Below are positions 4,046 to 24,289 of a stretch of DNA of 41,388 nucleotides, piece after piece. The DNA lies in contig DYDG01000012.1 of assembly GCA_020717845.1 (NCBI GenBank), positions 1 to 41,388 on the forward strand, in the 5' to 3' direction. This DNA comes from Marinifilum sp. (GTDB lineage: Bacteria; UBA9089; CG2-30-40-21). The translations under genes and the position numbers were made by a program. Position 1 is the stretch's first letter. Every line of letters starts with the position of its first letter. The notes beneath the pieces were generated by a model. That model worked only from the letters and a program-made list of their open reading frames with translations. It was not told the DNA's origin and did not search any database.

Positions 4046-4175
4046 GGTAAGTGGTGATCGGTGATCGGTGATCGGTGATCGGTGATCGGTGATCGGTGAT
4101 CGGTGATCGGTAATCAGATAATATAGGATACCGCTTTCCCAATCACTGATCACTGATCACCGATTACCACTTACC
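4046..4175. repeat. GGTGATC tandem/inverted repeat element between mreC and mreD
   Basis: The left arm holds eight perfect head-to-tail copies of the heptamer GGTGATC (4053-4108) plus one GGTAATC. The right arm holds the complementary units (CACTGATCACTGATCACC). The outer 16 bases, GGTAAGTGGTGATCGG and CCGATTACCACTTACC, pair with one mismatch, so the whole element can fold as a long hairpin. It contains the mreC stop codon (4171-4173). Related elements are at 35269-35341 and, partially, at about 43-94. All share GGATACCG or GATTACC modules. Confidence 0.85.
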
Positions 4176-7770: not shown

Positions 7771-7930
7771 TACCTCGAGCGGTCATAGATTGTGAATTTT
7801 TTCGGTGAGCAATGGGCATTGTTAGCAAGGCGTGAAGGTGAGTAATAGCCTATGCTATTTCGAACCTGAGCAACGCAGCTATCGATGTTCAGAGCCAGCG
7901 AAAAATCACAATTTGTGGCCGCTCGAGGTA
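7771..7930. mobile_element. 160-bp MITE-like element nested in the IS relic
   Basis: The ends are long imperfect inverted repeats: TACCTCGAGCGG(TCATAGATTGTGA...) on the left, and (...TCACAATTTGTGG)CCGCTCGAGGTA on the right, about 30 bp each. The flanks read TATA on both sides (GCTATACC and GGTATATA), consistent with a short AT target duplication. It has no open reading frame of its own. It lies between the dead transposase and cas3, and its right end supplies a GAGG followed seven bases later by an ATG. Confidence 0.7.
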
Positions 7931-7983
7931 TATATATGACGTTTTTGAAAGGTAATGGTCAGACGAGGTTTTGCGTAAGTCCT

Positions 7984-10620
7984 ATGAATAATATTTTCAA
8001 GTATTGGGGTAAAGTAAAACAAGATGAAAAAGACAGATGGAATTGCCATTTGCTACCGTATCACTGTCTTGATGTGGCAGCAGTAGGTGAGGTGTGGTTG
8101 GAACAAGATAAGGCACTACGTGAGCGTATTGCCTGTTCAATTAGAATAGATAAAGATGGCAGGCAACTTGACAATATTATTGGCTTTTTTCTTGCTCTTC
8201 ATGACCTCGGGAAATTTGACATACGGTTTCAGTCCAAGGTAACTGAAGTGAGCAATCTTGTTTGGCATGATCTGAACCAGAACGACTTATTTTTAACCAC
8301 AAGCCATATTACCGAGTATAACCACGGCAAGGCAGGGTACGATATTTTCGTCAAATTCTATACTCAGTTTCTCGACTTAGAATCTCAGGATGAAGATATT
8401 CTTGATAAATGGAAGCCGTGGATCTCAGCGGTTACAGGGCACCATGGAATCATACCCAGTCAGGCGAATTGGCATAAACCCAGCTCTGAGCAAAGCATAA
8501 TCGAGCACGACCATCAGGCACGAATGGAATGGTTCAAGGACTTGAGAATTCTCTTTTGGGGTCATAACGAAAGCATTCCTTTAATCCCTGAACTATCTCA
8601 AGAGAGTATCGCATTTATTGCTGGTTTCTGCTCGGTTGCAGACTGGATAGCCTCTAATGATTTGTTTGTCAGGTGGATTGACGATGAAATTTCATTGGAG
8701 CGTTACTTTGAAGAATCAAAAGAGCATTGCCGAAAAACAGGCATCCTTAAAGAAATCGGGGTGGTTGGGTGTCAGCCTTCACGATATGTGGGTATTGCGT
8801 CTCTTCTCTCAAATAAAGACAAACCCCGGCAGGTTCAGACACTCATTGATGATATGTTGCCTGAAACCGGGCTTTTGATTATCGAAGCTCCCACTGGCTC
8901 AGGCAAAACAGAATCTGCTCTGGCAATTGCATGGAAGTTGATTGATAGCGGTCAGGCGGATTCAATTATATTTGCCTTACCTACTCAGGCAACAGCCGAT
9001 GCAATGCTTGAACGACTACAGAATCTTGCACCTGTTTTATTTGAAGGCGGCGATGCCAATTTAGTACTTGCTCATGGCAAAGCGAAATACAATGAAATCT
9101 TTGCTAATCTTAAGGCGGCAGGCAGGCCTGGTGCTGCACAAAAAAGAGATGAAGGTGCTGTCCAGTGTGCACAGTGGATATCTTCAAGCCGCAAGCGTGT
9201 TTTTCTCGGTCAGATTGGAGTTTGCACTATTGATCAGGTGCTGCTTTCTGTTTTGCCTCTACGCCACAATTTTATCAGAAGTTTTGGTGTGATGAAAAGC
9301 GTTCTGATTATTGACGAAGTGCATGCTTACGACCGCTATATGTATGGTTTACTGGAAGAGGTGCTCAAACGGCAGAAATCAACAGGAGGATCTGCTATAC
9401 TTCTTTCGGCAACGCTCCCGGCTGTCCAAAAGCAGGAATTATTCAAAACATGGCATGAAGATAGTGGTGCAATGATAATTGATAATGCCACATATCCACT
9501 CATAAGCAAAATCTCAGTATCCGGTGAAAGTTCAGCCATTTCTCCTGCAACTGATGAAATGCCGCCGGAGCGTGCAATCCATATTGAGCTTGTTATTTCG
9601 GATAAGATGCAGCCCGATGAATCCATTATTACCAGATTACTCGAGGCTGCCAAAAGCGGGGCACTGGTGGCTGTTGTCTGCAACCTTGTTAAGGATGCCC
9701 AGCAAACAGCAAAAACCGCAAAAAAACTCTCTTCAATCATCTCGAATTCAAGTGTTCAGGTTGATATTTTTCATGCCCGATATCGGTTTAAGGATCGTCA
9801 GAAAAAAGAGAAGATTGCAAAAGAAATGTATGGCAAATCAGCCCCCAGAAACAGCGGTAGAATCCTTGTAGCCACGCAGGTTGTAGAACAAAGCCTTGAT
9901 CTTGATTTCGATTGGCTTATTACTCAACTATGTCCTGTGGATTTACTCTTTCAGCGTATGGGTCGTCTGCACCGTCACTATCGTTTAAGACCCACAGGAT
10001 TTGAAAAGCCGATATGCACAGTGCTTATATCCGAAAAAGATGATTTTGGTACACATGAATATATCTACCAGGATACGCGTGTCTTGTGGCGGACGCGGGA
10101 ATTGCTCAAAAAACAAGGCGATGAAATTCGCTTTCCTGCGGCTTATCGGGAATTAATAGAAGCTGTATATGGAAAATCAACATGGGATGATGATGAACCG
10201 GATTCAGTAATTGGGAAAAGCCTTGCGTTTAAGCAAGAACAAGAACTTCTGTGGTATACGGCTCAACAGCGAGCAACCAATGGAATGAACCCCTTTGCTG
10301 ATACTGATCAAAATGCAGCCAGCCTGACCCGCGGCAAAGAAATGAGTCTAACTGTGGTACCAATACAAGCCAAAGCTGCAAAGAAAACCTTATTGGATGG
10401 CGAATGTATAATTGATGTAAATGAATTCCAGCGGGATGAATTGCTGAATATGAATGCTGTTTCTGTCCCGGCTGGATGGAAATGGCTGCCATCGTTTGAA
10501 GACGGATATATCTACCTTCCCATGGAGAATACTTGCGAAGGTTGGGTTTGGAGGCACGGAAAGTATTCATTAAAATATACAAAAGATTTTGGTTTGGAAC
10601 AATTGGAGGAGGAAGAATGA
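7984..10620 (+). CDS. Cas3 helicase-nuclease, type I-E
   Basis: Cas3 is the effector nuclease recruited by Cascade to unwind and degrade target DNA. It has an N-terminal HD nuclease domain with YHCLDVA (about residue 27), LHDLGKFD (about 72) and TGHHG. A superfamily 2 helicase follows: Walker A EAPTGSGKTES (about 301), DEVH box LIIDEVHAYD (about 443), SATLP (about 475) and QRMGRLHRH (about 655). An accessory C-terminal domain ends the protein. Length from this ATG is 878 aa, normal for type I-E. The frame is open to 7885. An alternative ATG at 7936 has a better ribosome-binding site and would add 16 residues encoded by the IS relic. The stop overlaps the cas8e ATG. Confidence 0.96.
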   Translation: MNNIFKYWGKVKQDEKDRWNCHLLPYHCLDVAAVGEVWLEQDKALRERIACSIRIDKDGRQLDNIIGFFLALHDLGKFDIRFQSKVTEVSNLVWHDLNQNDLFLTTSHITEYNHGKAGYDIFVKFYTQFLDLESQDEDILDKWKPWISAVTGHHGIIPSQANWHKPSSEQSIIEHDHQARMEWFKDLRILFWGHNESIPLIPELSQESIAFIAGFCSVADWIASNDLFVRWIDDEISLERYFEESKEHCRKTGILKEIGVVGCQPSRYVGIASLLSNKDKPRQVQTLIDDMLPETGLLIIEAPTGSGKTESALAIAWKLIDSGQADSIIFALPTQATADAMLERLQNLAPVLFEGGDANLVLAHGKAKYNEIFANLKAAGRPGAAQKRDEGAVQCAQWISSSRKRVFLGQIGVCTIDQVLLSVLPLRHNFIRSFGVMKSVLIIDEVHAYDRYMYGLLEEVLKRQKSTGGSAILLSATLPAVQKQELFKTWHEDSGAMIIDNATYPLISKISVSGESSAISPATDEMPPERAIHIELVISDKMQPDESIITRLLEAAKSGALVAVVCNLVKDAQQTAKTAKKLSSIISNSSVQVDIFHARYRFKDRQKKEKIAKEMYGKSAPRNSGRILVATQVVEQSLDLDFDWLITQLCPVDLLFQRMGRLHRHYRLRPTGFEKPICTVLISEKDDFGTHEYIYQDTRVLWRTRELLKKQGDEIRFPAAYRELIEAVYGKSTWDDDEPDSVIGKSLAFKQEQELLWYTAQQRATNGMNPFADTDQNAASLTRGKEMSLTVVPIQAKAAKKTLLDGECIIDVNEFQRDELLNMNAVSVPAGWKWLPSFEDGYIYLPMENTCEGWVWRHGKYSLKYTKDFGLEQLEEEE

Positions 10621-12170
10621 ATCTATTGAAAGACCCTTGGATTCCGGTAAGAAACGGGGCTGACTTCCAACAGATAACTTATAAAGACTTGCTTTGCTTG
10701 GAACAGCCGATGTGCCGGGTGGCACTGTCTCGGGATGATTTGGAACTGGCCTGCATCCAGATGCTTGCCGCGTTGACACAGGTTATATTCATGCCTGCGG
10801 ACAAAAAGGAATTACGCACAAGAATTCAAACCCCGCTTACAGAACAGGAATATGAGACCAGAGTGAAAGAATATGAGGACTGGTTTGATCTGAATCATCC
10901 GAAGTGGCCGTTTATGCAGGTTCTTGAGCCTGGAACCGATGAAACAACCCCGATACAGAAGCTATTTTTAGGTTTGCCGGCAGGAAATAGTCATGCCTTT
11001 TTCAATGAGAGCAATGAATGTGAGAAGGTTTGTCTGCCATGTGCGGCAATAGGTCTTTTTAATTCTTGCACTCATGCCCCGAATATCTCTGGTAAACATA
11101 AAGGTGGGTTGCGGGGAAACGCACCGATATCCACTATGATTTACGATGGGTCGTTGCGAAAGATGATCTGGATGAATGTGCTATCACAAGAAATGGTTGA
11201 TCGAATAATGTTGGGTAATCGTCAGGAAATCCCTGTTTGGGTTGAAAAGATCAAAGGAGCAAAGAAGCAGGAGGATGGAGAGCAGATTCAGGCGACAAAC
11301 ATTGGCATGGCGCGCGGGCTCTTCTGGACACCAATTCTTGTCCGGCTCCTTTTTCATAACGAACCGATTGTTTGTGATTGTTGTGGATTGACCTCTAATG
11401 TAGGAATTAAAGGGTTTCGGCTTGGCAGTGTTTTTATGTTCATAGTAAAAGGTCTTTGGCCGCATCCGTATAGCCCTCGGCAACTGAACCTGCAAAAAGA
11501 GAATAAAAAGGGAAAAGAAATCCCAGAGGAATCTGTTGTGTCCTTCACAACCACTGAACCGGCATGGACGCAATTTTCAGAATTGCTCTTTCACTCAGAA
11601 AAAACTGATAAAAAGGAAGGATATGTCCCGGCTACTGTTATCTCTCAATATCACGACCTTTTCAGTGATAAAACTATGTATCTCCTTATAGGAGGTTATC
11701 GTAATAAACAAGCCTCGATTCTCCAGCGTCGGCATGAACTTTATTCAATACCTGCAGGTTGGAGTGATGATCTTCGTGACAGGATTATTGAAATTATCGA
11801 TATCGGGTTATCGATGAAAGAAATTTTGGTGAATAAAGTTCTGTATCCGGTAGTTAAGGGTGATGAGAAGAAAGGACTGAAAGGTGTTGGGGTTGCTATA
11901 AATACGAAGGCATCAGTTCTCTACTTTTATCTTACTGAATCACACATCCACAATATGCTTCGAGAAACCAGCCTGCGGGAATTTGCTCAGGCTAAAATTG
12001 TTTTTCTTGAAAACATTTCTCAAATTTGCCTTGATATCTTTGAGCGAGTTACTCAAGCCTACATCCATAAGCCCGAACTTATCGGCACAGTGGCTCTGGG
12101 CCGTGTGAAACTTAGGAGGCTTCTAAAAGAACTCAAAAACAAGCATAGTGTTAAAGGAGGTGTTGTATGA
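10617..12170 (+). CDS. Cas8e (Cse1/CasA), large subunit of Cascade
   Basis: This is the type I-E large subunit that reads the PAM and positions Cas3. It has 517 aa from the ATG at 10617, close to the roughly 500 aa of the family. The diagnostic N-terminus MNLLKDPWIPVR is present, as is the cysteine-bearing region CLPCAAIGLFNSCTHAP...CDCCG, which resembles zinc-ligand pairs. The helical C-terminal bundle ends in LRRLLKELKNKH. The start is set by GGAGGAGGAAG and by the ATGA overlap with the cas3 stop. Its end overlaps cse2 by 4 bp, so cas3-cas8e-cse2 are translationally coupled. Confidence 0.94.
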   Translation: MNLLKDPWIPVRNGADFQQITYKDLLCLEQPMCRVALSRDDLELACIQMLAALTQVIFMPADKKELRTRIQTPLTEQEYETRVKEYEDWFDLNHPKWPFMQVLEPGTDETTPIQKLFLGLPAGNSHAFFNESNECEKVCLPCAAIGLFNSCTHAPNISGKHKGGLRGNAPISTMIYDGSLRKMIWMNVLSQEMVDRIMLGNRQEIPVWVEKIKGAKKQEDGEQIQATNIGMARGLFWTPILVRLLFHNEPIVCDCCGLTSNVGIKGFRLGSVFMFIVKGLWPHPYSPRQLNLQKENKKGKEIPEESVVSFTTTEPAWTQFSELLFHSEKTDKKEGYVPATVISQYHDLFSDKTMYLLIGGYRNKQASILQRRHELYSIPAGWSDDLRDRIIEIIDIGLSMKEILVNKVLYPVVKGDEKKGLKGVGVAINTKASVLYFYLTESHIHNMLRETSLREFAQAKIVFLENISQICLDIFERVTQAYIHKPELIGTVALGRVKLRRLLKELKNKHSVKGGVV

Positions 12171-12667
12171 CACAAAATGAAAAAGGAGGCGGCTTGCCGA
12201 ATTTTGCAGAAGTCAGGAAGCGATATGAAAAATTTTCTCCGGGGAACAAGGCACAGATTGGCAAGAGAATAGGAACGCCGGAAGACCTGGCGATGATCCC
12301 GGCATTCTATAAGCTCTTTCCTGGTATTCAGCCGTCTGAATGGCACTACCGAGTAGCTTTTCTTGTTCCGTTTATTCGCTATTCAGATGTCGGGCCTACT
12401 TTGGGTGAATACATAGGCGAGCAAGAGCGATTGAAGAAGGTTGGCGGTCTTGAAAAAAGGGTCTTACAGGTTGCTCGGGCGAGCTCACCGCAGGATATGG
12501 TTTATCTTCGCAGGCTTTTAATGCGATTTGATGAACCAGCGGTTAATTGGGTTAAATCAGGGTTGGCAAAACTCTTTTCTGTAAATGAAGAGAAAAATGC
12601 TGAGGGGAAAAAGAGGTTTGTTGAACAATACTTTATATCCCGTTACAAGGAAAAGGAGGAAAAATAA
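12167..12667 (+). CDS. Cse2 (CasB/Cas11e), small subunit of Cascade
   Basis: This all-helical small subunit (166 aa; the usual range is 150-200) forms the belly dimer of Cascade and stabilises the displaced DNA strand. The sequence is basic and helix-rich (AEVRKRYEKFSPGNKAQIGKR...) and ends in a lysine/glutamate-rich tail. A conserved pattern in this family, a segment like FLVPFIRYSD followed by LRRLLMRFDE and an aromatic-KxxLAKLF region, is present. It overlaps cas8e by 4 bp and its stop overlaps the cas7e ATG by one base. Assignment rests on length, composition and fixed operon position together. Confidence 0.9.
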   Translation: MTQNEKGGGLPNFAEVRKRYEKFSPGNKAQIGKRIGTPEDLAMIPAFYKLFPGIQPSEWHYRVAFLVPFIRYSDVGPTLGEYIGEQERLKKVGGLEKRVLQVARASSPQDMVYLRRLLMRFDEPAVNWVKSGLAKLFSVNEEKNAEGKKRFVEQYFISRYKEKEEK

Positions 12668-13779
12668 TGTCTGAACAGAAAAATTTCGTTAATTTTCATG
12701 TGCTTATTTCGCATAGTCCGTCATGCCTTAATCGGGATGACCAGAATATGCAGAAACGAGCAGTCTTCGGGGGAGTTGAAAGGATACGGATATCAAGCCA
12801 GAGTTTGAAGAGAGCGATGCGAACCTCTTCATACTATGCAAAGGAATTTGGGTTGCCATCAATAAGATCAAACAAACTTGAAAAATTGGTCGCGAAATTC
12901 ACCGATGCCTTGAAAAATGAATATTCGGTTGACCTTGTCAAGAAAGCTGTCGAATGGATCTCTGGAAAAAGTGGATTTGAGGCAGGTGGCGAAGCAGATT
13001 CTGTCGCTCCGTGGGCGATTGCTGAAGTCGCCATGTTTTGCGATAGAATTAAAGAGGCTGAAACTGCCGGTATAGACCAGGACAAACTTAAGAAACAGAT
13101 TGAAAAAGATGCCTCGCCATTTCGGAAGAACTTTGAGCAAGCCATAGATATAGCACTCTCTGGTCGAATGGCAACATTTGGCCTTATGAATGCGATTCCA
13201 GTTGACGGCTCGCTCGCTGTTGCTCATGCTATCACTACTCATGCCGCTCAGGCTGATACCGACTGGTTCACCGCGGTTGACGACCTGGTGCAGGAATCAG
13301 GCGAAGTAGGTGCCGGTCATCTTGATACGCAGGAATTCTCCTCTGGCGTATTTTATCGTTATGCCAGCCTTAACATTGCTCAGTTGCAAAAAAATCTTGG
13401 CGGAGCTGATCGTAAAAGGGCACTTGAAATTGCAAAACATGTATTTCACATGCTTTGCACCGTAGTGCCTTCAGCAAAACAACAGTCATTTGCTGCACAT
13501 AATCTTGCTGATTTTGCTATCGTTACCCTTGATGACCAGCCCATATCCCTGGCTAATGCCTTCGAACAACCAGTAGAGAAGGAGAAAAACGGCGGGTATC
13601 TGAAGCCATCTGTCTCTGCACTCGCCAATTACTTCAGCCGTATGAAGAAAGTGTACGGTCTTGATGGATCGGCATCTGGAACACCAGCAGATATTGGTGT
13701 CACTATCCCCAGTGATTTGACTATGCTGACTTCGTTTCCAGCGATTGAAACATGGATTGCCAATGATGGCAGCAGATAA
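12667..13779 (+). CDS. Cas7e (Cse4/CasC), Cascade backbone subunit
   Basis: This RRM-fold protein (370 aa) polymerises as six copies along the crRNA. The family signatures are evident: VNFHVLISHSPSCLNRDD near the N-terminus, RAVFGGVERIRISSQSLKRA, ALSGRMATFGLMNAIPVDG, and the late VVPSAKQQSFAAHNLADF segment. Length and motifs match E. coli CasC. A GGAAAAGGAGG ribosome-binding site precedes the ATG. Twelve bases separate it from cas5e. Confidence 0.95.
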   Translation: MSEQKNFVNFHVLISHSPSCLNRDDQNMQKRAVFGGVERIRISSQSLKRAMRTSSYYAKEFGLPSIRSNKLEKLVAKFTDALKNEYSVDLVKKAVEWISGKSGFEAGGEADSVAPWAIAEVAMFCDRIKEAETAGIDQDKLKKQIEKDASPFRKNFEQAIDIALSGRMATFGLMNAIPVDGSLAVAHAITTHAAQADTDWFTAVDDLVQESGEVGAGHLDTQEFSSGVFYRYASLNIAQLQKNLGGADRKRALEIAKHVFHMLCTVVPSAKQQSFAAHNLADFAIVTLDDQPISLANAFEQPVEKEKNGGYLKPSVSALANYFSRMKKVYGLDGSASGTPADIGVTIPSDLTMLTSFPAIETWIANDGSR

Positions 13780-13791
13780 GGAGGAAACTAT

Positions 13792-14481
13792 ATGCCTCAA
13801 TTTCTTATTATAAAACTTGACGGTGTAATGCAAGGATGGGGTGGGCATACTTACGAAGACTGGCGGCCTACTGAGCTTTTTCCTACACGTAGCGGATTAT
13901 TGGGTCTACTTGGAGCTTGCCTTGGTATTGACAGGCAGGATATAGAAAGGCTTAATGCTCTTGCTGTAAGCGTCTGTTTTACTATTCGGGCAGATTGCCG
14001 GGCGGATGATACCGGCAAACCCATTGCATCCTTAAGGCTCTGTGATTATCACACTATTGAGCATGCTCGAAAGGTTGATGGTTCAGAAAACAAGAATCCA
14101 GTTCAGTCTTACCGCTGGTATCTTTTCGACACACTGTTTACAGTAGCGATAGAAGCCACCATAGATGCGAAGGTAACATTGGACGAGATTGCAGAAGCCT
14201 TGAAAAAACCGGTCTATACGCCGTTTCTTGGCAGACGAAGTTGTCCTATATCTTGTCCATTATTGGAACCGGGTTTATCTGAACCATTTGAAGCGGTAAA
14301 TGCCAAAGAAGCGATTGCTCGAAGCGGTTCAGGGGGTTCAGTTATTTATACCGAGTCGCAGGATTGGATGTCTGAGAGCCGTCTGCGTATGCGAGATGTT
14401 CCTATGTATGGACGAATTAGAACATTTACTACGCGAGAGGTTTATATCCATTCCGAAAAGGAGGTGGACAATGTATCTTAG
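13792..14481 (+). CDS. Cas5e (CasD), crRNA 5'-handle binding subunit
   Basis: This RAMP-fold protein (229 aa) caps the 5' handle of the crRNA in Cascade. The N-terminus (FLIIKLDGVMQGWGGHTYED) and the following RPTELFPTRSGLLGLLGACLGI are the standard Cas5 family beginning, with the glycine-rich helix that follows the first strand. The C-terminal YTPFLGRRSCP and MRDVPMYGR segments also match Cas5e. The start follows AGGAGG. Its last 11 bases overlap cas6e. Confidence 0.94.
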   Translation: MPQFLIIKLDGVMQGWGGHTYEDWRPTELFPTRSGLLGLLGACLGIDRQDIERLNALAVSVCFTIRADCRADDTGKPIASLRLCDYHTIEHARKVDGSENKNPVQSYRWYLFDTLFTVAIEATIDAKVTLDEIAEALKKPVYTPFLGRRSCPISCPLLEPGLSEPFEAVNAKEAIARSGSGGSVIYTESQDWMSESRLRMRDVPMYGRIRTFTTREVYIHSEKEVDNVS

Positions 14482-15127
14482 TAAAATTGTGCTTTCCTGG
14501 CCCGCTTGCCGAAATCCGTATCAATGGCATCGGACAATATGGCAGTTGTTTCCCAATCATCAGGAAGCAGAACGGAGCTTTCTCTTTTCCTGTATTGACC
14601 ACCGGCCCGGCAAAAATATTTCCGCATTGCTTTTTTCGATAGAAAAACCGGAGAGAATACAATCAAAGGAGGTAACGCTATCTGAAGAACCGAAATCACT
14701 GGCTGGTTTGTCATTCAAGCCGGGACAGATGTTAGGCTTCCGCTTAACGGCTAATCCGACAAAAGTCATCACCGAGCAGACAGATGAAATACACATGTCC
14801 CCCACAGGCGCGGGGATGAATCAACGCAAGATTCGTGTTCCGTTGATTAAAAGAGAACAACAAGAGGATTGGCTGAAGCGGAAACTTGATGGACTCGCAG
14901 TTGTTGAAAATGTAATGCCGCAAAATGAGCCTCCGCTTTACTTCAACCGAAAAAATAGAGGCGGTAAGATTGTCCCTGTTACCTTTGAAGGAATTCTCAG
15001 AGTAGTTAATCCTGAAAAGTTTAAAGAACAAATCTACGAAAAATATAACGAAAAAGGTGAATATATTGCTGGCATTGGTCCTGCTAAAGCATTTGGCTGT
15101 GGGCTGATGATGGTGAAAAGGATATGA
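14471..15127 (+). CDS. Cas6e (Cse3/CasE), CRISPR RNA endoribonuclease
   Basis: Cas6e cleaves pre-crRNA at the 3' base of the repeat hairpin and stays bound to it in Cascade. Length is 218 aa. The N-terminus MYLSKIVLSWPACRNPYQWH matches the family. Catalytic histidine H20 follows Tyr-Gln-Trp, aligning with Tyr23/His26 of the E. coli enzyme from memory. The C-terminal glycine-rich loop GIGPAKAFGCGLMMV is intact. The start at 14471 has AAAAGGAGG upstream. Unusually, 14795-14823 is a near-copy of this locus's CRISPR repeat, encoding HMSPTGAGMNQ. This replaces, with a few added residues, the loop that in E. coli lies just before RCRVPLIK. Confidence 0.94.
   Translation: MYLSKIVLSWPACRNPYQWHRTIWQLFPNHQEAERSFLFSCIDHRPGKNISALLFSIEKPERIQSKEVTLSEEPKSLAGLSFKPGQMLGFRLTANPTKVITEQTDEIHMSPTGAGMNQRKIRVPLIKREQQEDWLKRKLDGLAVVENVMPQNEPPLYFNRKNRGGKIVPVTFEGILRVVNPEKFKEQIYEKYNEKGEYIAGIGPAKAFGCGLMMVKRI
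14795..14823 (+). repeat. CRISPR-repeat-like sequence embedded in cas6e
   Basis: Aligned with the 29-nt array repeat on the same strand, this stretch matches at 25 of 29 positions. Within the core GTCCCCCACAGGCGCGGGGA, only two bases differ (T to C at the third position and in the loop-closing pair). The hairpin arms CCCC and GGGG and the AGGC loop are kept, and the 3' handle reads ATGAATCA instead of ATGAACCG. One A-C mismatch weakens the stem. Confidence 0.9.
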
Positions 15128-15155: not shown

Positions 15156-15987
15156 ATGGAAACTAAACTGGCAGTATTTAAGGGCAAGGAAATACGGCGG
15201 ACACTTCATAATAACGAGTGGTGGTTTTCTGTTGTAGATGTATGTGAGGTGCTCACTGAAAGTCCTGATCCAGGAGCATATTGGCGAAAAATGAAACAAA
15301 GACTCAAAGAAGAGGGAAGTGAACCCGTGACATTTTGTCACGGGTTGAAATTGATTGCCCCCGATGGAAAGATGAGAGAGACTGATTGTGCCAATACCGA
15401 AGGGATTTTCCGAATCATCCAGTCTGTTCCCTCTCCCAAAGCCGAACCTTTCAAACGCTGGCTGGCAAAGGTTGGATATGAGAGGGTCCAGGAGATAGAA
15501 GACCCAGAACTTGCCACAAAGAGGACAAGGGCTTTATACAAGGCAAAGGGATACTCTGATGACTGGATTGAGAAGAGGATACGCGGTATTGCCATTAGAG
15601 AGGAGCTAACGGATGAATGGAAAAAGCGAGAGATAACACAGCAGAAGGAGTATGAGATACTTACTGCTGAAATAGCCAGAGCCGCTTTTGGAATAACACC
15701 GAGTCAGCATAAGAGCATAAAGGGGCTGAATCGGGAGAATCTGAGAGACCATATGACCGATCTTGAATTAATATTCTCAATGCTCGGTGAAGCTGCTACT
15801 ACAGAGATAACCAGGGTCGATGATGCCAAAGGATTTCACGAAAACAAGACAGCAGCCCGAAAAGGTGGAGAGGTTGCAGGAAAAGCACGAAAGGATCTTG
15901 AAGAAAAAACCGGCAAACGGGTCATTTCTAAAGAAAACTACCTGATAATCTCTCAGAGTCAGAAGAAATTGGAGAAAAGGAGGGAAA

Positions 15988-15995
<8 letters not shown>
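15156..15995 (+). CDS. Bro-N domain (phage antirepressor/DinD-like) protein inside the cas operon
   Basis: This 279-aa protein has an N-terminal Bro-N DNA-binding domain (about residues 5-110; KEIRRTLHNNEWWFSVVDVCEVL, EGIFRIIQSVPSPKAEPFKRWLAKVG). A conserved C-terminal region follows (GYSDDWIEKRIRGIAIREELT, HKSIKGLNRENLRDHMTDLE, TARKGGEVAGKARKDLE). This architecture is widespread in bacteria as a BRO-family or DNA-damage-inducible D-like protein; its molecular role is poorly defined. It follows cas6e by 28 bp with its own AAAGGAGG, and its last 8 bases overlap the cas1 start. It is therefore part of the operon rather than a neighbour. It is not a recognised type I-E component. A transcriptional regulator or damage-response link is inference. 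Confidence 0.88.
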
Positions 15996-17221
<1,226 letters not shown>

Positions 17222-17225
17222 AAAT

Positions 17226-17756
17226 ATGGTTAATATTGAAAGCATCCTATTGCCCAGCAGCCGATACCGTGCATTCCTTGATATTGAAACTACTGGTTTG
17301 AGCCCAACGAGGGGGGATTTGACCGTAATTGGAATATGTTTGGAGAATGATGCTCATCAAGAGTTTATTCAATTGCTTGAAAACGATATATCCTCGGCAA
17401 TGCTGTTTAAGATAATTGAAAATGTGGATATACTTTATACCTATAACGGCACAAGATTTGATTTACCCTATATCAAGGCAAAATTAGGCGTAGATTTGAC
17501 TGAACATTGCCTTCATATAGATTTGATGTATGAATGCTGGCGAAAAAGGCTATATGGCGGACTTAAAAGGGTGGAAAAACAACTTGGGATTAAAAGAAAA
17601 TTGATAGAAATAGATGGAAGAATGGCAGTTAAATTATGGTATGAGTATAAATTTTATGGAAATAAACAGGCTCTGGTTACCTTGCTGGAATATAATAAGG
17701 AAGATGTGCTGAATCTAATGTTGATACGAGAAAAATTATGTGTGGATAGGAGATAG
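17226..17756 (+). CDS. Stand-alone DEDDy 3'-5' exonuclease (YprB/RNase_H_2-like) next to cas2
   Basis: This 176-aa ribonuclease-H-fold exonuclease domain has all four acidic residues: FLDIETTGL (Asp19, Glu21), TYNGTRFDLPYI (Asp79) and EYNKEDVLNL (Tyr156, Asp160). The Y-x3-D form makes it DEDDy, distinct from the DEDDh DnaQ domains. It resembles the single-domain YprB-like nucleases (COG3359 as I recall). The start at 17226 follows GAGG at good spacing and lies 4 bp after the cas2 stop. An in-frame ATG at 17211 lacks a site. It is the last gene before the leader. By analogy with Cas2-DnaQ fusions and Cas4, it may trim prespacer ends, which is inference. Confidence 0.85.
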   Translation: MVNIESILLPSSRYRAFLDIETTGLSPTRGDLTVIGICLENDAHQEFIQLLENDISSAMLFKIIENVDILYTYNGTRFDLPYIKAKLGVDLTEHCLHIDLMYECWRKRLYGGLKRVEKQLGIKRKLIEIDGRMAVKLWYEYKFYGNKQALVTLLEYNKEDVLNLMLIREKLCVDRR

Positions 17757-17816
17757 ATTTTTGGTAGAATTTGAAGTATCAAAATAATCCAGTAATTTCA
17801 AGGGAGTTGAAGAAGT
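17757..17816 (+). promoter_or_regulatory. Short CRISPR leader
   Basis: Only 60 AT-rich bases separate the exonuclease stop from the first repeat, so the array promoter may lie inside that gene. TATCAAAATAATC at 17777-17789 partly matches an IHF site (WATCAANNNNTTR, last triplet off). It falls within the distance window where IHF binds type I-E leaders. Treat the IHF reading as tentative. Confidence 0.45.
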
Positions 17817-20224
17817 ATGTTCCCCACAGGCGTGGGGATGAACCTCGCCCTAATCGTCGTGCCAGTAAAATCCATAAATGTTCCCCACAGGCGTGGGGAT
17901 GAACCGCATACCCCGATACCGCAGTGCTCGGACGTGTGATGTTCCCCACAGGCGTGGGGATGAACCGATTACATCCCGCTGCTCACGTAGGGCGATAGCA
18001 TGTTCCCCACAGGCGTGGGGATGAACCGATATTTTTGTAGGGAAAAGCTGGAAAGCGTGCATGTTCCCCACAGGCGTGGGGATGAACCGCTAATGTTAGT
18101 TGATGTGATTGCTGAGGTCAAATGTTCCCCACAGGCGTGGGGATGAACCGCCCACCAGTGATGTCATTGTTAGCTGCTTCCGATGTTCCCCACAGGCGTG
18201 GGGATGAACCGTTACCGCAAGAAACACGGCAACGATTTCTTGAATGTTCCCCACAGGCGTGGGGATGAACCGTATATTTTCCCCAATAGCGGCATACTCG
18301 GCAGATGTTCCCCACAGGCGTGGGGATGAACCGACGCGGGGGGATGTCGGCGTGTGTCCTTGCCCATGTTCCCCACAGGCGTGGGGATGAACCGGTCACG
18401 GAGCAGGGACGACGGCACAGCTCCCTATGTTCCCCACAGGCGTGGGGATGAACCGCAGGATATTCTGTGATGCCTAACGATACTGAGATGTTCCCCACAG
18501 GCGTGGGGATGAACCGTACTTTCCGTTAACACTGTTAATCCGTTAATTATGTTCCCCACAGGCGTGGGGATGAACCGGGCTAAAACGGATGAGATGGGAT
18601 AAGTTTTGCATGTTCCCCACAGGCGTGGGGATGAACCGCTATACGCTATTGGTCGAACAGTAGCAGGCAAATGTTCCCCACAGGCGTGGGGATGAACCGC
18701 TACGGATTTTAGCATAACTGCGGATTATGCTATGTTCCCCACAGGCGTGGGGATGAACCGGCTGTCTGGGATAGCCAGCATTGGGCGATAATATGTTCCC
18801 CACAGGCGTGGGGATGAACCGTATATCGGTAAGAGCAGGGGATACCACCTCTGATGTTCCCCACAGGCGTGGGGATGAACCGTTGATGAAAGGCTTGCGG
18901 CTCAAAGGGTTACGATGTTCCCCACAGGCGTGGGGATGAACCGATATACAGGCAGATAAGGAGGTTGACACAGCCATGTTCCCCACAGGCGTGGGGATGA
19001 ACCGCTGGATATGTTATTAAAGCTGGTCATATTGTTATGTTCCCCACAGGCGTGGGGATGAACCGGGTGATGGTATTGCACGGATAAGAGAACTTGTATG
19101 TTCCCCACAGGCGTGGGGATGAACCGTTTATTGCCATGACAGGTGCTAAAAACTTTATATGTTCCCCACAGGCGTGGGGATGAACCGCTGGAAAGGACTA
19201 ATTGAGGATACGAGTGCAGATGTTCCCCACAGGCGTGGGGATGAACCGGATTATGGTTATTGCGGTAAATGTGGACAGCAATGTTCCCCACAGGCGTGGG
19301 GATGAACCGTACTCTGCCGATGTCATTCCGGTGGAACTAACATGTTCCCCACAGGCGTGGGGATGAACCGTTGAATTACTCGGTCACTCGTTCGATTGTC
19401 TGATGTTCCCCACAGGCGTGGGGATGAACCGCACTCTGAGGAGAGAGACCAAACATTGACACGATGTTCCCCACAGGCGTGGGGATGAACCGGCAGAGGG
19501 TGTTATTCTCAGGGGTTTTTCGCAATGTTCCCCACAGGCGTGGGGATGAACCGTGATAATGGACGCAAAAATAAACGCTGGGGCAATGTTCCCCACAGGC
19601 GTGGGGATGAACCGGTCAACCATCCTTTTTTTGTGCCTAAATTCTGATGTTCCCCACAGGCGTGGGGATGAACCGACACGCTGTGCCGTCGTCCCCTACT
19701 CCGTGCCATGTTCCCCACAGGCGTGGGGATGAACCGGGATTCTGTCCGACTCCAACGTGCTGTCTATCATGTTCCCCACAGGCGTGGGGATGAACCGAAG
19801 GAGGAAGATCATGGAAAACTGGGCACAAAATGTTCCCCACAGGCGTGGGGATGAACCGATATTGCTTTTAGGGTTACTCTTATATGGTATATGTTCCCCA
19901 CAGGCGTGGGGATGAACCGCAGTTTGAGAGCAAGCACAAAGAGGTTCTAAAATGTTCCCCACAGGCGTGGGGATGAACCGGCAGGTAGGATCAAGGGGTG
20001 TCCCGCTCGTCCATGTTCCCCACAGGCGTGGGGATGAACCGCATCATAGACGACTATGTTGCATTGGTCGAGAATGTTCCCCACAGGCGTGGGGATGAAC
20101 CGAGGGAGACGGATACCCCAGCAAGATAGAGACTATGTTCCCCACAGGCGTGGGGATGAACCGTTCTCTGAGGTATCCCCGCTACCCTCTGGCTTATGTT
20201 CCCCACAGGCGTGGGGATGAACCC
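17817..20224 (+). CRISPR. Type I-E CRISPR array, 40 repeats and 39 spacers
   Basis: The 29-nt repeat begins ATGTTCCCCACAGGCGTGGG and ends with the 8-nt handle ATGAACCG. It folds into a 7-bp hairpin (TCCCCAC/GTGGGGA, loop AGGC). Starts fall exactly at 17817+61n for n=0-39, so every spacer is 32 nt. The first 28 nt are identical in all 40 copies by inspection, with no decay at the distal end. The 29th base is G after 38 repeats, T after the leader-proximal repeat and C after the last. Transcription is left to right from the cas side. I recognise no spacer target. Apparent minus-strand reading frames across the array are artefacts of the repeat. Confidence 0.98.
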
Positions 20225-21075: not shown

Positions 21076-22350
21076 TTAAGTAATCATCCGTTCCTTCACC
21101 ATCTTAATGGCACAAAAGCTGCCGCACATGCCGCAGGTATCATCATTGACATGTCCCCTGATCTTGTTTACCGTATCAGGGTTAATGGCACATTCAGCCT
21201 GTTTTTCCCAATCAAGCTGAGCTCTTGCCTTAGCCATTTTAATATCCCTGTCAAGTGCCCCTGGTATTTGTTTGGCAATATCACCAGCATGGGCGGCAAT
21301 CAAGGCAGCAATGACACCATTTTTAACATCATCTATAGTAGGAAGGTTAAGGTGTTCAGAAGGGGTAACATAGCATAAAAAATCAGCCCCGGCTGCCGCA
21401 GCTATTGCCCCGCCAATGGCTGCGGTTATATGATCGTATCCAGGGGCAATATCTGTCACCAATGGCCCAAGAACATAAAATGGGGCATGATTGCAAAGCT
21501 GTTTTTGCAAAAGCACATTGGCTGTTATTTGATTCATCGGAACATGTCCTGGCCCCTCAATCATCACCTGCACTCCTGCCTTATATGCCCTCTTTGCCAA
21601 TTCCCCCAGGATAATCAACTCTTGAACCTGTGGTCTATCAGTAGCATCCATCAGACATCCCGGACGAAGCCCATCCCCAAGGCTCAAAACCACATCATAC
21701 TCTCTGGCAATACTCAAGATATTATCAAACAGCTCATAAAAAGGATTTTCTTTATTATGATAAAGCATCCATTCAACAATAAATGTGCCGCCACGGCTAA
21801 CCGTGTCCATACACCTGCCCTGCTGCTTTAATCTCTCAATAATCTCGCGAGTAATCCCGCAATGAACGGTTATAAAATCTACCCCATCCTCAGCCTGCCG
21901 AGTAATCACCTCAATGATATCCTCAGCAGTCATGGCCATGATAGAGCCATCCCTTTCAACAGCATTCAACGTAGCCTCGTATATTGGCACAGTCCCAAAG
22001 GGAACAGCTATCTTTTCCAGCAATGTTTTCCTTATCTCCCTGACATTACCGGCAATACTCAGATCCATAATAGCATCTGCCCCGGCAGCTATAGCTACCT
22101 CTGCCTTTTTTATCTCCTCATCAATCTCAATATGCTGTGGTGATGTGCCGATATTGGCATTGACCTTTGTCCGAAGCCCCTGTCCTATGCCTGAATATGT
22201 CTTAGTGTGATGGTTGGTATTATGCGGAATAACTATCCTACCATCAGCAATACCCTGCCTGATAAATTCAACATCTCGGCCCTCACTGCTTGCAACGTAT
22301 CTTACTTCGTCAGTGATTACACCATTTATTGCCTGTTCTAATTGAGTCAT
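21076..22350 (-). CDS. ThiC-family phosphomethylpyrimidine synthase
   Basis: This radical-SAM enzyme of the ThiC family converts aminoimidazole ribotide to hydroxymethylpyrimidine phosphate for thiamine. Length is 424 aa, the short form without the N-terminal domain of E. coli ThiC. Signatures include KVNANIGTSP, AGADAIMDLSIAGN, EGPGHVPMNQI, FYVLGPLVTDIAPGYDHITAAIGG and SEHLNLP. The C-terminal cluster motif reads TCGMCGSFCAIKM, giving CX2CX3C; the enterobacterial enzyme has CX2CX4C as I recall. No TPP riboswitch is visible, since the gene overlaps its upstream neighbour by 4 bp. A benzimidazole-forming paralogue (BzaF-type) is an alternative given B12 genes elsewhere in the window, but sequence alone does not decide. 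Confidence 0.9.
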   Translation of the reverse strand: MTQLEQAINGVITDEVRYVASSEGRDVEFIRQGIADGRIVIPHNTNHHTKTYSGIGQGLRTKVNANIGTSPQHIEIDEEIKKAEVAIAAGADAIMDLSIAGNVREIRKTLLEKIAVPFGTVPIYEATLNAVERDGSIMAMTAEDIIEVITRQAEDGVDFITVHCGITREIIERLKQQGRCMDTVSRGGTFIVEWMLYHNKENPFYELFDNILSIAREYDVVLSLGDGLRPGCLMDATDRPQVQELIILGELAKRAYKAGVQVMIEGPGHVPMNQITANVLLQKQLCNHAPFYVLGPLVTDIAPGYDHITAAIGGAIAAAAGADFLCYVTPSEHLNLPTIDDVKNGVIAALIAAHAGDIAKQIPGALDRDIKMAKARAQLDWEKQAECAINPDTVNKIRGHVNDDTCGMCGSFCAIKMVKERMIT

Positions 22351-22808
22351 TTATTTCTCCTTAATTCTGAAAAAGATACGCCACATCTTTTAATCTTAAT
22401 CTGATAAGAGATGCCCTTAAATTCGATCTTAGTCTTTCCTATCTTTTTACATTCTGTTACATTCCATGCCTTAGCTAATACAACAAGATACACTGGAAAT
22501 TTTGTAGATGCAGCCTTACATTTTTGCTCTAAAATATCCAGTGCAAGTCGTAACCCATTATTAAGCTTTTCACGAATCTCTGTTGCATGTACAGTTTTGC
22601 TTTTTAACTCTACAAGACAGATGCAATCCTGCATAAATATGATACAATCACATATGCTTTGTTTCTGACAAATCTGCTCACCCTTTAATACAACATAATC
22701 TGTCTGGCCATCAATTTCTATCCGACAACCCTGTTCCTCACACCGACGACGAATAATTTTGGCATCACTAAACTCTTCTCTAATACAATCTGGGATATGC
22801 ACTGCCAT
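22347..22808 (-). CDS. Small PD-(D/E)XK-like nuclease paired with the upstream ATPase
   Basis: This 153-aa protein is not recognised by name. The central segment SICDCIIFMQDCICLVELKSK has the spacing of a PD-(D/E)XK nuclease core: Asp54 after a strand, then Glu67-x-Lys69. A helix with conserved-looking NNGLRLALDILEQ follows, and a late strand YLVVLAKAW. It is rich in cysteine. Its ATG overlaps the stop of the ATPase gene (TAATG), and its end overlaps thiC. A two-gene ATPase-nuclease unit, as in several anti-phage modules, is inference from fold motifs and coupling. A non-nuclease DNA-binding role cannot be excluded. Confidence 0.6.
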   Translation of the reverse strand: MAVHIPDCIREEFSDAKIIRRRCEEQGCRIEIDGQTDYVVLKGEQICQKQSICDCIIFMQDCICLVELKSKTVHATEIREKLNNGLRLALDILEQKCKAASTKFPVYLVVLAKAWNVTECKKIGKTKIEFKGISYQIKIKRCGVSFSELRRNK

Positions 22809-24289
22809 TAATTCCCATCCTCTGATTGCAAACTGAATGTTTCATCATAAAGAGCATCATAGATCCGAATAAATTCTTCTTGCGATATTCCGTCTTTCTC
22901 AGTAACCTCTACTGGATGTATCTTATACCCACAACTTTTCTTATCATAATCAAACACATAAGCAGCAATCTCATCATATTTCAAATAATCTTCTTTGCTA
23001 TAGCTATATTTTTCTACTCTTTTTTGTGGATCAACCTTACTCAGATGTATAAAATTGCTAAGCTGTTCCAGTAAATACTCGCTATGGGTAGTAATTATCA
23101 ACCTAATTCCTTTCCTGATCAGTCTAACCAGAAACTTTGCTAAGATTCGCTGATTTCCTGGATGTAAATGTGCCTCTGGTTCTTCAATAATTAAAACATC
23201 TCCTTTGTAGACAAGATACTTCAAATAGAGAAAAAGTGGGGCTAATTCAGAGACAGTAGATGAACTTCTATGTAATGGAATATCTGTATCGTGAAATTTA
23301 TATCGTAATTCTGGAGAATATCCATCCGCAACACGGATAACAATCTCACCATTAATTAATTCATTCTCCAACTCTCTGACAAGCTGATAAAAAACCGTTT
23401 GTTCTTCAGGCAAACAAAAAAGATTAGAAATAAACTCAGCTGCTATCTCTGGCAACAATGGGGTATCTATTTTATTTGCACTCTTCTTGATTATACCCGC
23501 TACTACTGCTTTATATATCTGAAGAATGCCAGATCTTCCTGCAGGGAGATAATGAGATATTCTCCCTTGATGTCCTTCTTCTGTAGTTGCCAGTTGCAAT
23601 AGTAGCGTATATTCCCTTTGTATTAAAGCAGCAAGAAAACTTCCGTCTGAGTCGATTTCACTCATTCCAATGGAAACATTTCCATCATTAGTATCCCTCC
23701 AATAGCGAGTGCCACCGAGTTGTATAAGGGCTTTATCAAGTATGATTTTTGTCCCAATATGTGGATATTTTTTGACACTTAACCTATCATTGCCTGTTAA
23801 GCAGATATTACAAGAGCCCAAATTAATCTTCAAGGAAAAAGATTCTTTACCTGACTTGACTAATTCCTTTAATTTGCAACTATACTTGTCTTCAAGTTCT
23901 TTAGCTAACCCGTTTTCGTATATTCCATTTGTGATATAAGTTACTATTTTTTGCTCAATCTCTCCTGGAACACAGATCTCTTTCCCTTGTTCCATAATTT
24001 GTTCTAATTCATAGAGTTGATTGTTTAACAGGATGTCCTTATTAAACATATCATTCCAAGACAAGGAGGAGAATATAGCTGAAGATGCTTTCTCGAAAAG
24101 CGATGCTCTATATATCGAATGAATTAGCAATGCTGCGTAAGATTTCCCTGAGTTATTTGGTCCGATAAATAGAACAAGGGGTTTTAACGCTATTTTGCCG
24201 CTACTTATAGGACCAAAATCTTTTATTTCAATGCTAATAGATTTACTTGTTTTGCCATCTTTTTCATCTATCATGCTCTTTTCCTTCAT
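22808..24289 (-). CDS. OLD-like AAA ATPase (AAA_15/AAA_21 type)
   Basis: This 493-aa ABC-type ATPase of the SMC/OLD group has Walker A FIGPNNSGKSYAALL (about residue 47), a signature-like SSSTVSELAPLFLYLK, Walker B VLIIEEPEAHLHP and the switch histidine in RLIITTHSEYLLEQL. No TOPRIM domain is seen after the ATPase, so it is not a classic OLD nuclease. The nuclease-like function may be supplied by the next gene, whose start overlaps its stop. The start at 24289 has GAGGAGATTGG upstream and overlaps the phosphorylase gene by 26 bp. Homologues are common in defence and other mobile modules. The substrate is unknown. Confidence 0.82.
   Translation of the reverse strand: MKEKSMIDEKDGKTSKSISIEIKDFGPISSGKIALKPLVLFIGPNNSGKSYAALLIHSIYRASLFEKASSAIFSSLSWNDMFNKDILLNNQLYELEQIMEQGKEICVPGEIEQKIVTYITNGIYENGLAKELEDKYSCKLKELVKSGKESFSLKINLGSCNICLTGNDRLSVKKYPHIGTKIILDKALIQLGGTRYWRDTNDGNVSIGMSEIDSDGSFLAALIQREYTLLLQLATTEEGHQGRISHYLPAGRSGILQIYKAVVAGIIKKSANKIDTPLLPEIAAEFISNLFCLPEEQTVFYQLVRELENELINGEIVIRVADGYSPELRYKFHDTDIPLHRSSSTVSELAPLFLYLKYLVYKGDVLIIEEPEAHLHPGNQRILAKFLVRLIRKGIRLIITTHSEYLLEQLSNFIHLSKVDPQKRVEKYSYSKEDYLKYDEIAAYVFDYDKKSCGYKIHPVEVTEKDGISQEEFIRIYDALYDETFSLQSEDGN

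What the first reader, a model, noticed from the sequence alone, without database searches (positions are those of the whole stretch)
17226..17756. Stand-alone DEDDy exonuclease as the tenth gene of a type I-E cas operon
An intact DEDDy nuclease (Asp19, Glu21, Asp79, Tyr156, Asp160) is encoded 4 bp after cas2 and directly before the leader. Type I-E systems lack Cas4, and some instead have a DnaQ-like DEDDh domain fused to Cas2 or recruited from the host for prespacer trimming. Here the nuclease is of a different subclass (YprB-like) and separate. The placement suggests a dedicated prespacer-trimming or PAM-processing enzyme.
Basis: partly seen in the sequence, partly recalled or inferred. Interest (0 to 1): 0.8.

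Follow-up and report, generated by a model that had tools for sequence, protein, structure and literature searches.

The report
Exonuclease gene inserted beside CRISPR cas2
A CRISPR immune locus carries an extra DNA- or RNA-trimming enzyme gene between its spacer-capture genes and its spacer array; close relatives of the locus lack it, but an unrelated locus of the same type acquired a similar gene in the same spot, suggesting that it helps prepare new spacers.

Summary
Window 17226-17756 encodes an intact RNase_H_2 (PF13482, YprB/MrfB-like) exonuclease with a full DEDDy set. It starts 4 bp after cas2e of a complete type I-E operon and ends at the first base of the leader. It is not a conserved cas gene. 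Of 116 other type I-E Cas1 loci examined, including the 80 closest, only one has an RNase_H_2 gene after cas2. The nearest homologue, in a same-order genome (78% identical), stands away from any cas gene. In relatives the leader directly follows cas2, so the gene was inserted cleanly at the cas2-leader junction. The single recurrence carries weight: in G292 (another phylum, distant I-E lineage) an RNase_H_2 exonuclease from the other side of a 100/100 tree split overlaps cas2 by 4 nt and precedes the array. Two further loci carry Cas2-DEDDh fusions, the proven trimmer-integrase architecture. Best reading: independent, probably recent captures of a stand-alone 3'-5' exonuclease for prespacer or PAM-end trimming in a Cas4-less system. 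Function is inferred. A published screen already reports 'RNaseH' linked to adaptation modules (UAS-3, UAS-45), which I could not compare.

The parts
17226..17756 (+). DEDDy 3'-5' exonuclease-like gene (RNase_H_2, 176 aa)
   Evidence: Pfam 3.9e-39; catalytic residues
16892..17221 (+). cas2e
   Evidence: Pfam 8.2e-37, NCBIfam TIGR01873 3.2e-35
15988..16911 (+). cas1e
   Evidence: NCBIfam TIGR03638 6.7e-118
15156..15995 (+). Bro-N gene between cas6e and cas1 (PADLOC candidate PDC-S13)
   Evidence: upstream of cas1 in 15 of 116 other I-E loci
14471..15127 (+). cas6e
13792..14481 (+). cas5e
12667..13779 (+). cas7e
12167..12667 (+). cas11e
   Evidence: PADLOC Cas11e 3.1e-6
10617..12170 (+). cas8e
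7885..10620 (+). cas3
17757..17816 (+). 60-bp leader, homologous to leaders that directly follow cas2 in relatives
17817..20224 (+). CRISPR array, 40 repeats of 29 nt, 39 spacers of 32 nt

Best explanation
A lineage-resident, stand-alone DEDDy exonuclease gene of the RNase_H_2 (YprB-like) family was captured between cas2e and the leader of a type I-E locus, with its ribosome-binding site inside the cas2 end, so it is probably made together with Cas1-Cas2. It most likely removes single-stranded 3' overhangs (and the PAM) from prespacers protected by Cas1-Cas2, the job done by a fused DEDDh domain in some I-E systems, by host DnaQ/ExoT in others and by Cas4 elsewhere. Shown here: gene, active-site residues, position, clean insertion before an intact leader, purifying selection relative to its nearest homologue, and one independent recurrence. 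Inferred: co-transcription, 3'-5' activity on DNA, cooperation with Cas1-Cas2, PAM trimming.
For: Position and integrity. The 60-bp leader begins right after the exonuclease stop and aligns end to end with leaders that follow cas2 directly in relatives, so the gene was inserted inside the locus rather than standing next to it. Recurrence: G292 contig C67 has an I-E operon ending in cas1, cas2, then a 272-aa RNase_H_2 gene (Pfam 3.2e-29) overlapping cas2 by 4 nt, then the array. Its Cas1e is only 34% identical to the window's and its exonuclease lies across a 100/100 split in the tree, so capture was independent. Of four coding inserts seen at this junction (window, G292, L054/L056, L055) two are RNase_H_2. 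Two of 116 loci (L150, L180) have Cas2-DEDDh fusions at the same place. In the 35 genomes with a close homologue, it lies near Cas1 in 2 of 4 genomes with a type I-E Cas1 and in 0 of 18 with only other Cas1. dN/dS against the G006 homologue is 0.17-0.21. Fused DEDDh trimming and host exonucleases acting in trans are described in PMC10284694 (passages read).
Against: 0 of the 80 closest Cas1e loci carry it. In G006 (78% identity) and in the three other homologue surroundings read in full (G056, G004, G008) the gene stands among unrelated genes. Other inserts at the junction are not exonucleases (a 137-aa unknown; a MazE-like antitoxin). Spacers are 32 nt as in relatives without the gene. dN/dS is a two-branch average and does not isolate selection after capture. 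No activity test; DEDDy enzymes also include RNases.
Confidence: 0.55

Rival explanations
1. Bystander cargo: the cas2-leader junction tolerates insertions, and a mobile or shuffled housekeeping exonuclease landed there without any role in CRISPR.
For: 0 of 80 closest loci have it; homologues mostly away from cas; other unrelated inserts at the junction, L054/L056 and L055; GC 36% against 43-49% for the cas genes.
Against: Independent recurrence of the same enzyme family at the same place in G292. The family is about 0.3-0.4 genes per genome (21 of 61 genomes at E<=0.001), so my rough, post hoc estimate is under 0.1% that one of three other inserts would be one by chance.
Confidence: 0.3
2. 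RNA-side role: the DEDDy enzyme trims crRNA or degrades nanoRNA/transcript ends, like NrnC or RNase D.
For: NrnC is among the weak PDB sequence matches (0.006); the DEDDy subclass includes RNases.
Against: Position beside the adaptation genes; best match is the DNA exonuclease MrfB; I-E crRNAs need no 3' trimming (recalled).
Confidence: 0.07
3. Interference or repair role: it resects ends of Cas3 products or repairs array gaps after integration, as MrfB acts in DNA damage repair.
For: MrfB is a DNA repair exonuclease (PMC11194089, passages read).
Against: No repair helicase partner next to it (ORFs); position gives no specific support.
Confidence: 0.08

Closest known systems
Cas1-Cas2/DEDDh trimmer-integrase, type I-E (Megasphaera; PMC10284694)
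   Same: 3'-5' DEDD-superfamily exonuclease delivered with Cas2 of a Cas4-less I-E system
   Different: fused, DnaQ-like DEDDh; here separate, DEDDy, RNase_H_2
Stand-alone DEDDh ancillary exonucleases of CRISPR loci (PADLOC PDLC01247; PMC10284694 passage)
   Same: separate exonuclease gene linked to cas genes
   Different: window protein matches the DEDDh model only weakly over 37 residues (7.8e-5)
MrfB/YprB
   Same: best PDB sequence match; exonuclease core alignable along most of its length
   Different: MrfB is DEDDh (His258) with a C-terminal TPR domain; window protein is DEDDy, 176 aa, no TPR
UAS-3 / UAS-45, adaptation modules linked with RNaseH (PMC10910872)
   Same: RNase H-fold protein linked to adaptation genes
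   Different: cannot be compared: only the sentence in section 14 was readable; subtype and sequence not seen

Membership tests
RNase_H_2 (PF13482) | profile match above cut-off over the whole domain | tested here: met
   134.7 bits against cut-off 22, positions 1-164 of 165
DEDDy exonucleases | D-x-E, second D, Y-x3-D | tested here: met
   D19, E21, D79, Y156, D160
DEDDy exonucleases | 3'-5' exonuclease activity | not testable with these tools
   no assay
Cas2-DEDDh trimmer-integrase | exonuclease fused to Cas2 | tested here: not met
   cas2 stops at 17221; separate ORF
Cas2-DEDDh trimmer-integrase | RNase_T/DnaQ DEDDh domain | tested here: not met
   no RNase_T hit, Y instead of H; L150 and L180 do have it
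MrfB | DEDDh His and C-terminal TPR | tested here: not met
   Tyr156; protein ends 16 residues after motif III
Type I-E CRISPR-Cas | cas3, cas8e, cas11e, cas7e, cas5e, cas6e, cas1e, cas2e and array | tested here: met
Accessory cas gene of type I-E | recurrent linkage in independent loci | tested here: inconclusive
   1 of 116 other I-E Cas1 loci; that one is independent

The most novel reading that the evidence does not exclude
The cas2-leader junction of Cas4-less type I-E loci is a repeated docking place for 3'-5' exonucleases of different subfamilies. Stand-alone RNase_H_2 DEDDy enzymes, captured at least twice, are a new class of dedicated prespacer/PAM trimmer acting in trans, and may mirror the step before Cas2-exonuclease fusion.
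Probability: 0.42. Interest if true: 0.65.

Novelty: new variant of a known kind. Interest (0 to 1): 0.52.

Why it matters
How Cas4-less systems trim prespacers and remove the PAM is worked out for a fused DEDDh enzyme and for borrowed host nucleases. A separate, operon-encoded enzyme of another subclass would be a clean test of whether any 3'-5' exonuclease suffices, gated by Cas1-Cas2, and would show how such fusions may arise. Two independent natural examples (window, G292) make the question directly testable in vitro.

Tried and rejected
Tried: exonuclease in phages (1 hit, 29% identity, record without annotation) and viral contigs (none confirmed): no phage origin shown. Plasmids: only ten haloarchaeal records with either query; four of the ten surroundings viewed, no cas gene within 8 kb, six not viewed. 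Single-sequence AlphaFold model: mean pLDDT 37, discarded; no fold search made. Idea that the gene merely flanks the locus: rejected, because it sits inside, between cas2 and the leader. Idea that it changes spacer length: no sign. Two phylum-level surveys reached only 2 and 4 genomes, two more the same 8 and one only 5.

Dropped or limited rows: of 387 confirmed Cas1 relatives only the best 80 were kept by the tool. Of those 80, the script found an array after cas2 in 71; six more show a repeat by eye within about 110 bp; three (L039, L050, L058) could not be read. Of the other 36 loci, the script found an array in 28. L158 is a partial Cas1 under the cut-off and has no cas2 hit.

Full report
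What is there. The window carries a complete type I-E operon on the + strand: cas3 7885, cas8e 10617, cas11e 12167, cas7e 12667, cas5e 13792, cas6e 14471, a Bro-N gene 15156, cas1e 15988, cas2e 16892-17221, then the gene in question, 17226-17756, and an array of 40 repeats at 17817-20224 with 39 distinct spacers, all of 32 nt. The product (176 aa) is a full-length RNase_H_2 domain (PF13482, 3.9e-39) with D19, E21, D79, Y156 and D160. By sequence its best solved relative is the Bacillus repair exonuclease MrfB (8un9, 9.7e-6), which however is DEDDh and has a TPR domain (PMC11194089, passages). The start at 17226 has GAGGT 8 nt upstream, inside the last cas2 codons (read).

Where the gene comes from. 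It is single-copy in its genome: the only other hit has E=0.18 and stops inside. In a survey of 61 genomes, 21 have a homologue at E<=0.001. The nearest, in same-order genome G006, is 78% identical and stands between a TPR-protein gene and an EpsI-like gene (names recalled from the sequence), without cas genes. The DNA match to G006 covers 17277-17743, i.e. only the inside of the ORF, about 85% identical by my reckoning from the alignment score; dN/dS is 0.17 (NG86) to 0.21 (YN00). Homologues in G056, G004 and G008 are likewise among unrelated genes. The three same-genus genomes have neither the exonuclease nor a type I-E Cas1; G000 is the only one of 19 genomes of the phylum searched with a type I-E Cas1. 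So the cas system was probably acquired from outside, its nearest Cas1 relatives being in bins titled Deltaproteobacteria, Geobacter, Nitrospirae and the like, while the exonuclease belongs to a family resident in the order and phylum. GC agrees: 36% against 43-49%.

It is an insertion, not a neighbour. In the 80 closest Cas1e loci (75-87% identical best segments) the array normally begins 50-130 bp after the cas2 stop (65 of the 71 loci with an array found by script). In the window the 60 bases between the exonuclease stop and the first repeat are a leader: they align from end to end with, for example, the leader of L060, and score above all 20 shuffles in 38 of 65 comparisons. The gene was thus placed between cas2 and an intact leader. 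None of the 80 has an RNase_H_2 gene there. Exceptions with something else at the junction: L054 and L056 (a 137-aa ORF without family), L055 (MazE-like antitoxin), and longer gaps without a clear gene in L044, L059 and L108.

Recurrence. Among 386 genomes, 35 have a homologue at E<=1e-20 and 25 a type I-E Cas1, both counts including the window's genome. In G292, from another phylum, both lie on contig C67: an I-E operon (cas1, cas2 and the exonuclease confirmed by Pfam; the other cas genes named by me from the ORFs) whose cas2 stop overlaps the start of a 272-aa RNase_H_2 gene by 4 nt (GTGA), followed by the array. Its motifs (D-x-E, a second D, YNEED) are again DEDDy, read directly. Its Cas1e is 34% identical to the window's, and its exonuclease falls among the long YprB-like forms, on the other side of a 100/100 split from the window's short form, although on a long branch. 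The two captures are independent. In all I examined 116 type I-E Cas1 loci other than the window: 80, 25 and 11 new ones. A profile of 33 sequences, among them the G292 domain, run on every ORF of 40 codons or more found only G292 convincingly (4.5e-49; next 0.0037, far from cas1), while it detected all 11 of 11 control homologues that were not used to build it; G292 itself was found before, by the window's protein alone. Two of the 116, L150 and L180, carry Cas2-DEDDh (RNase_T) fusions.

Weighing. Frequency alone argues against a conserved cas gene: 1 of 116. The nature of the inserts argues for function: four independent coding inserts at the junction (window, G292, L054/L056, L055), two of them the same enzyme family, in a subtype without Cas4, at the place where other I-E loci have a fused exonuclease. 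Homologues occur at about 0.3-0.4 genes per genome, so a chance match among three other inserts is well under 1% by my rough, post hoc estimate. In the 35 genomes with a close homologue it lies near Cas1 in 2 of 4 that have a type I-E Cas1 and in 0 of 18 that have only another Cas1; G184 has both on one contig but about 168 kb apart. The contigs of many of these genomes are short, so some linkages could be hidden by contig ends.

Mechanism. The best model is that the enzyme trims 3' overhangs, and the PAM after half-integration, of prespacers gated by Cas1-Cas2, as shown for the fused DEDDh enzyme; that paper also states that stand-alone DEDDh exonucleases are widespread ancillary components and that host exonucleases may act in trans (PMC10284694, passages). 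Only sequence, position, insertion, recurrence and constraint are shown here; the rest is inferred.

Literature. Searches for CRISPR with cas2 and YprB (0 papers), with RNase_H_2 (nothing relevant), with DEDDy, and type I-E with cas2, exonuclease, RNase H-like and accessory (0) found no description of this arrangement. [quoted passage not shown] its supplement was not available to me, so prior sighting cannot be excluded. A 2006 survey lists a 3'-5' exonuclease fused to COG1343, the Cas2 family by my recollection (PMC1462988, passage).

Verdict. Observation confirmed; interpretation partly supported: a real, intact, independently recurring but rare capture of an exonuclease beside cas2, most likely serving prespacer processing. 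A new variant of a known kind.

Noticed in passing
window 15156-15995: A Bro-N gene (PADLOC candidate defence family PDC-S13, 1.5e-124) sits between cas6e and cas1. Relatives of it lie on the same strand within 1.5 kb upstream of cas1 in 15 of 116 other I-E loci (12 near full length, 3 partial; all among the 80 closest). It is far more recurrent than the exonuclease; also found on plasmids. One search (Bro-N, CRISPR, type I-E) found no paper.
   Followed up: partly
window 22347-24289 (-): AAA_15 ATPase (493 aa; PADLOC PD-T4-4_A 4.5e-44, AriA 2e-29) followed by a 153-aa protein without Pfam family: a possible two-gene defence system beyond thiC, about 2.1 kb from the array end.
   Followed up: partly
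L054 and L056, 11228-11641: 137-aa ORF without family between cas2 and the array, shared by two related I-E loci.
   Followed up: partly
L055, from 11181: MazE-like antitoxin between cas2 and the array.
   Followed up: no
   Followed up: yes
G000:C111:867-1718: The window's genome has a second Cas1 on another contig, with a full-length PF01867 match (6.9e-97), so not of the I-E kind.
   Followed up: no
window 4053-4115: Nine tandem copies of the heptamer GGTGATC.
   Followed up: no
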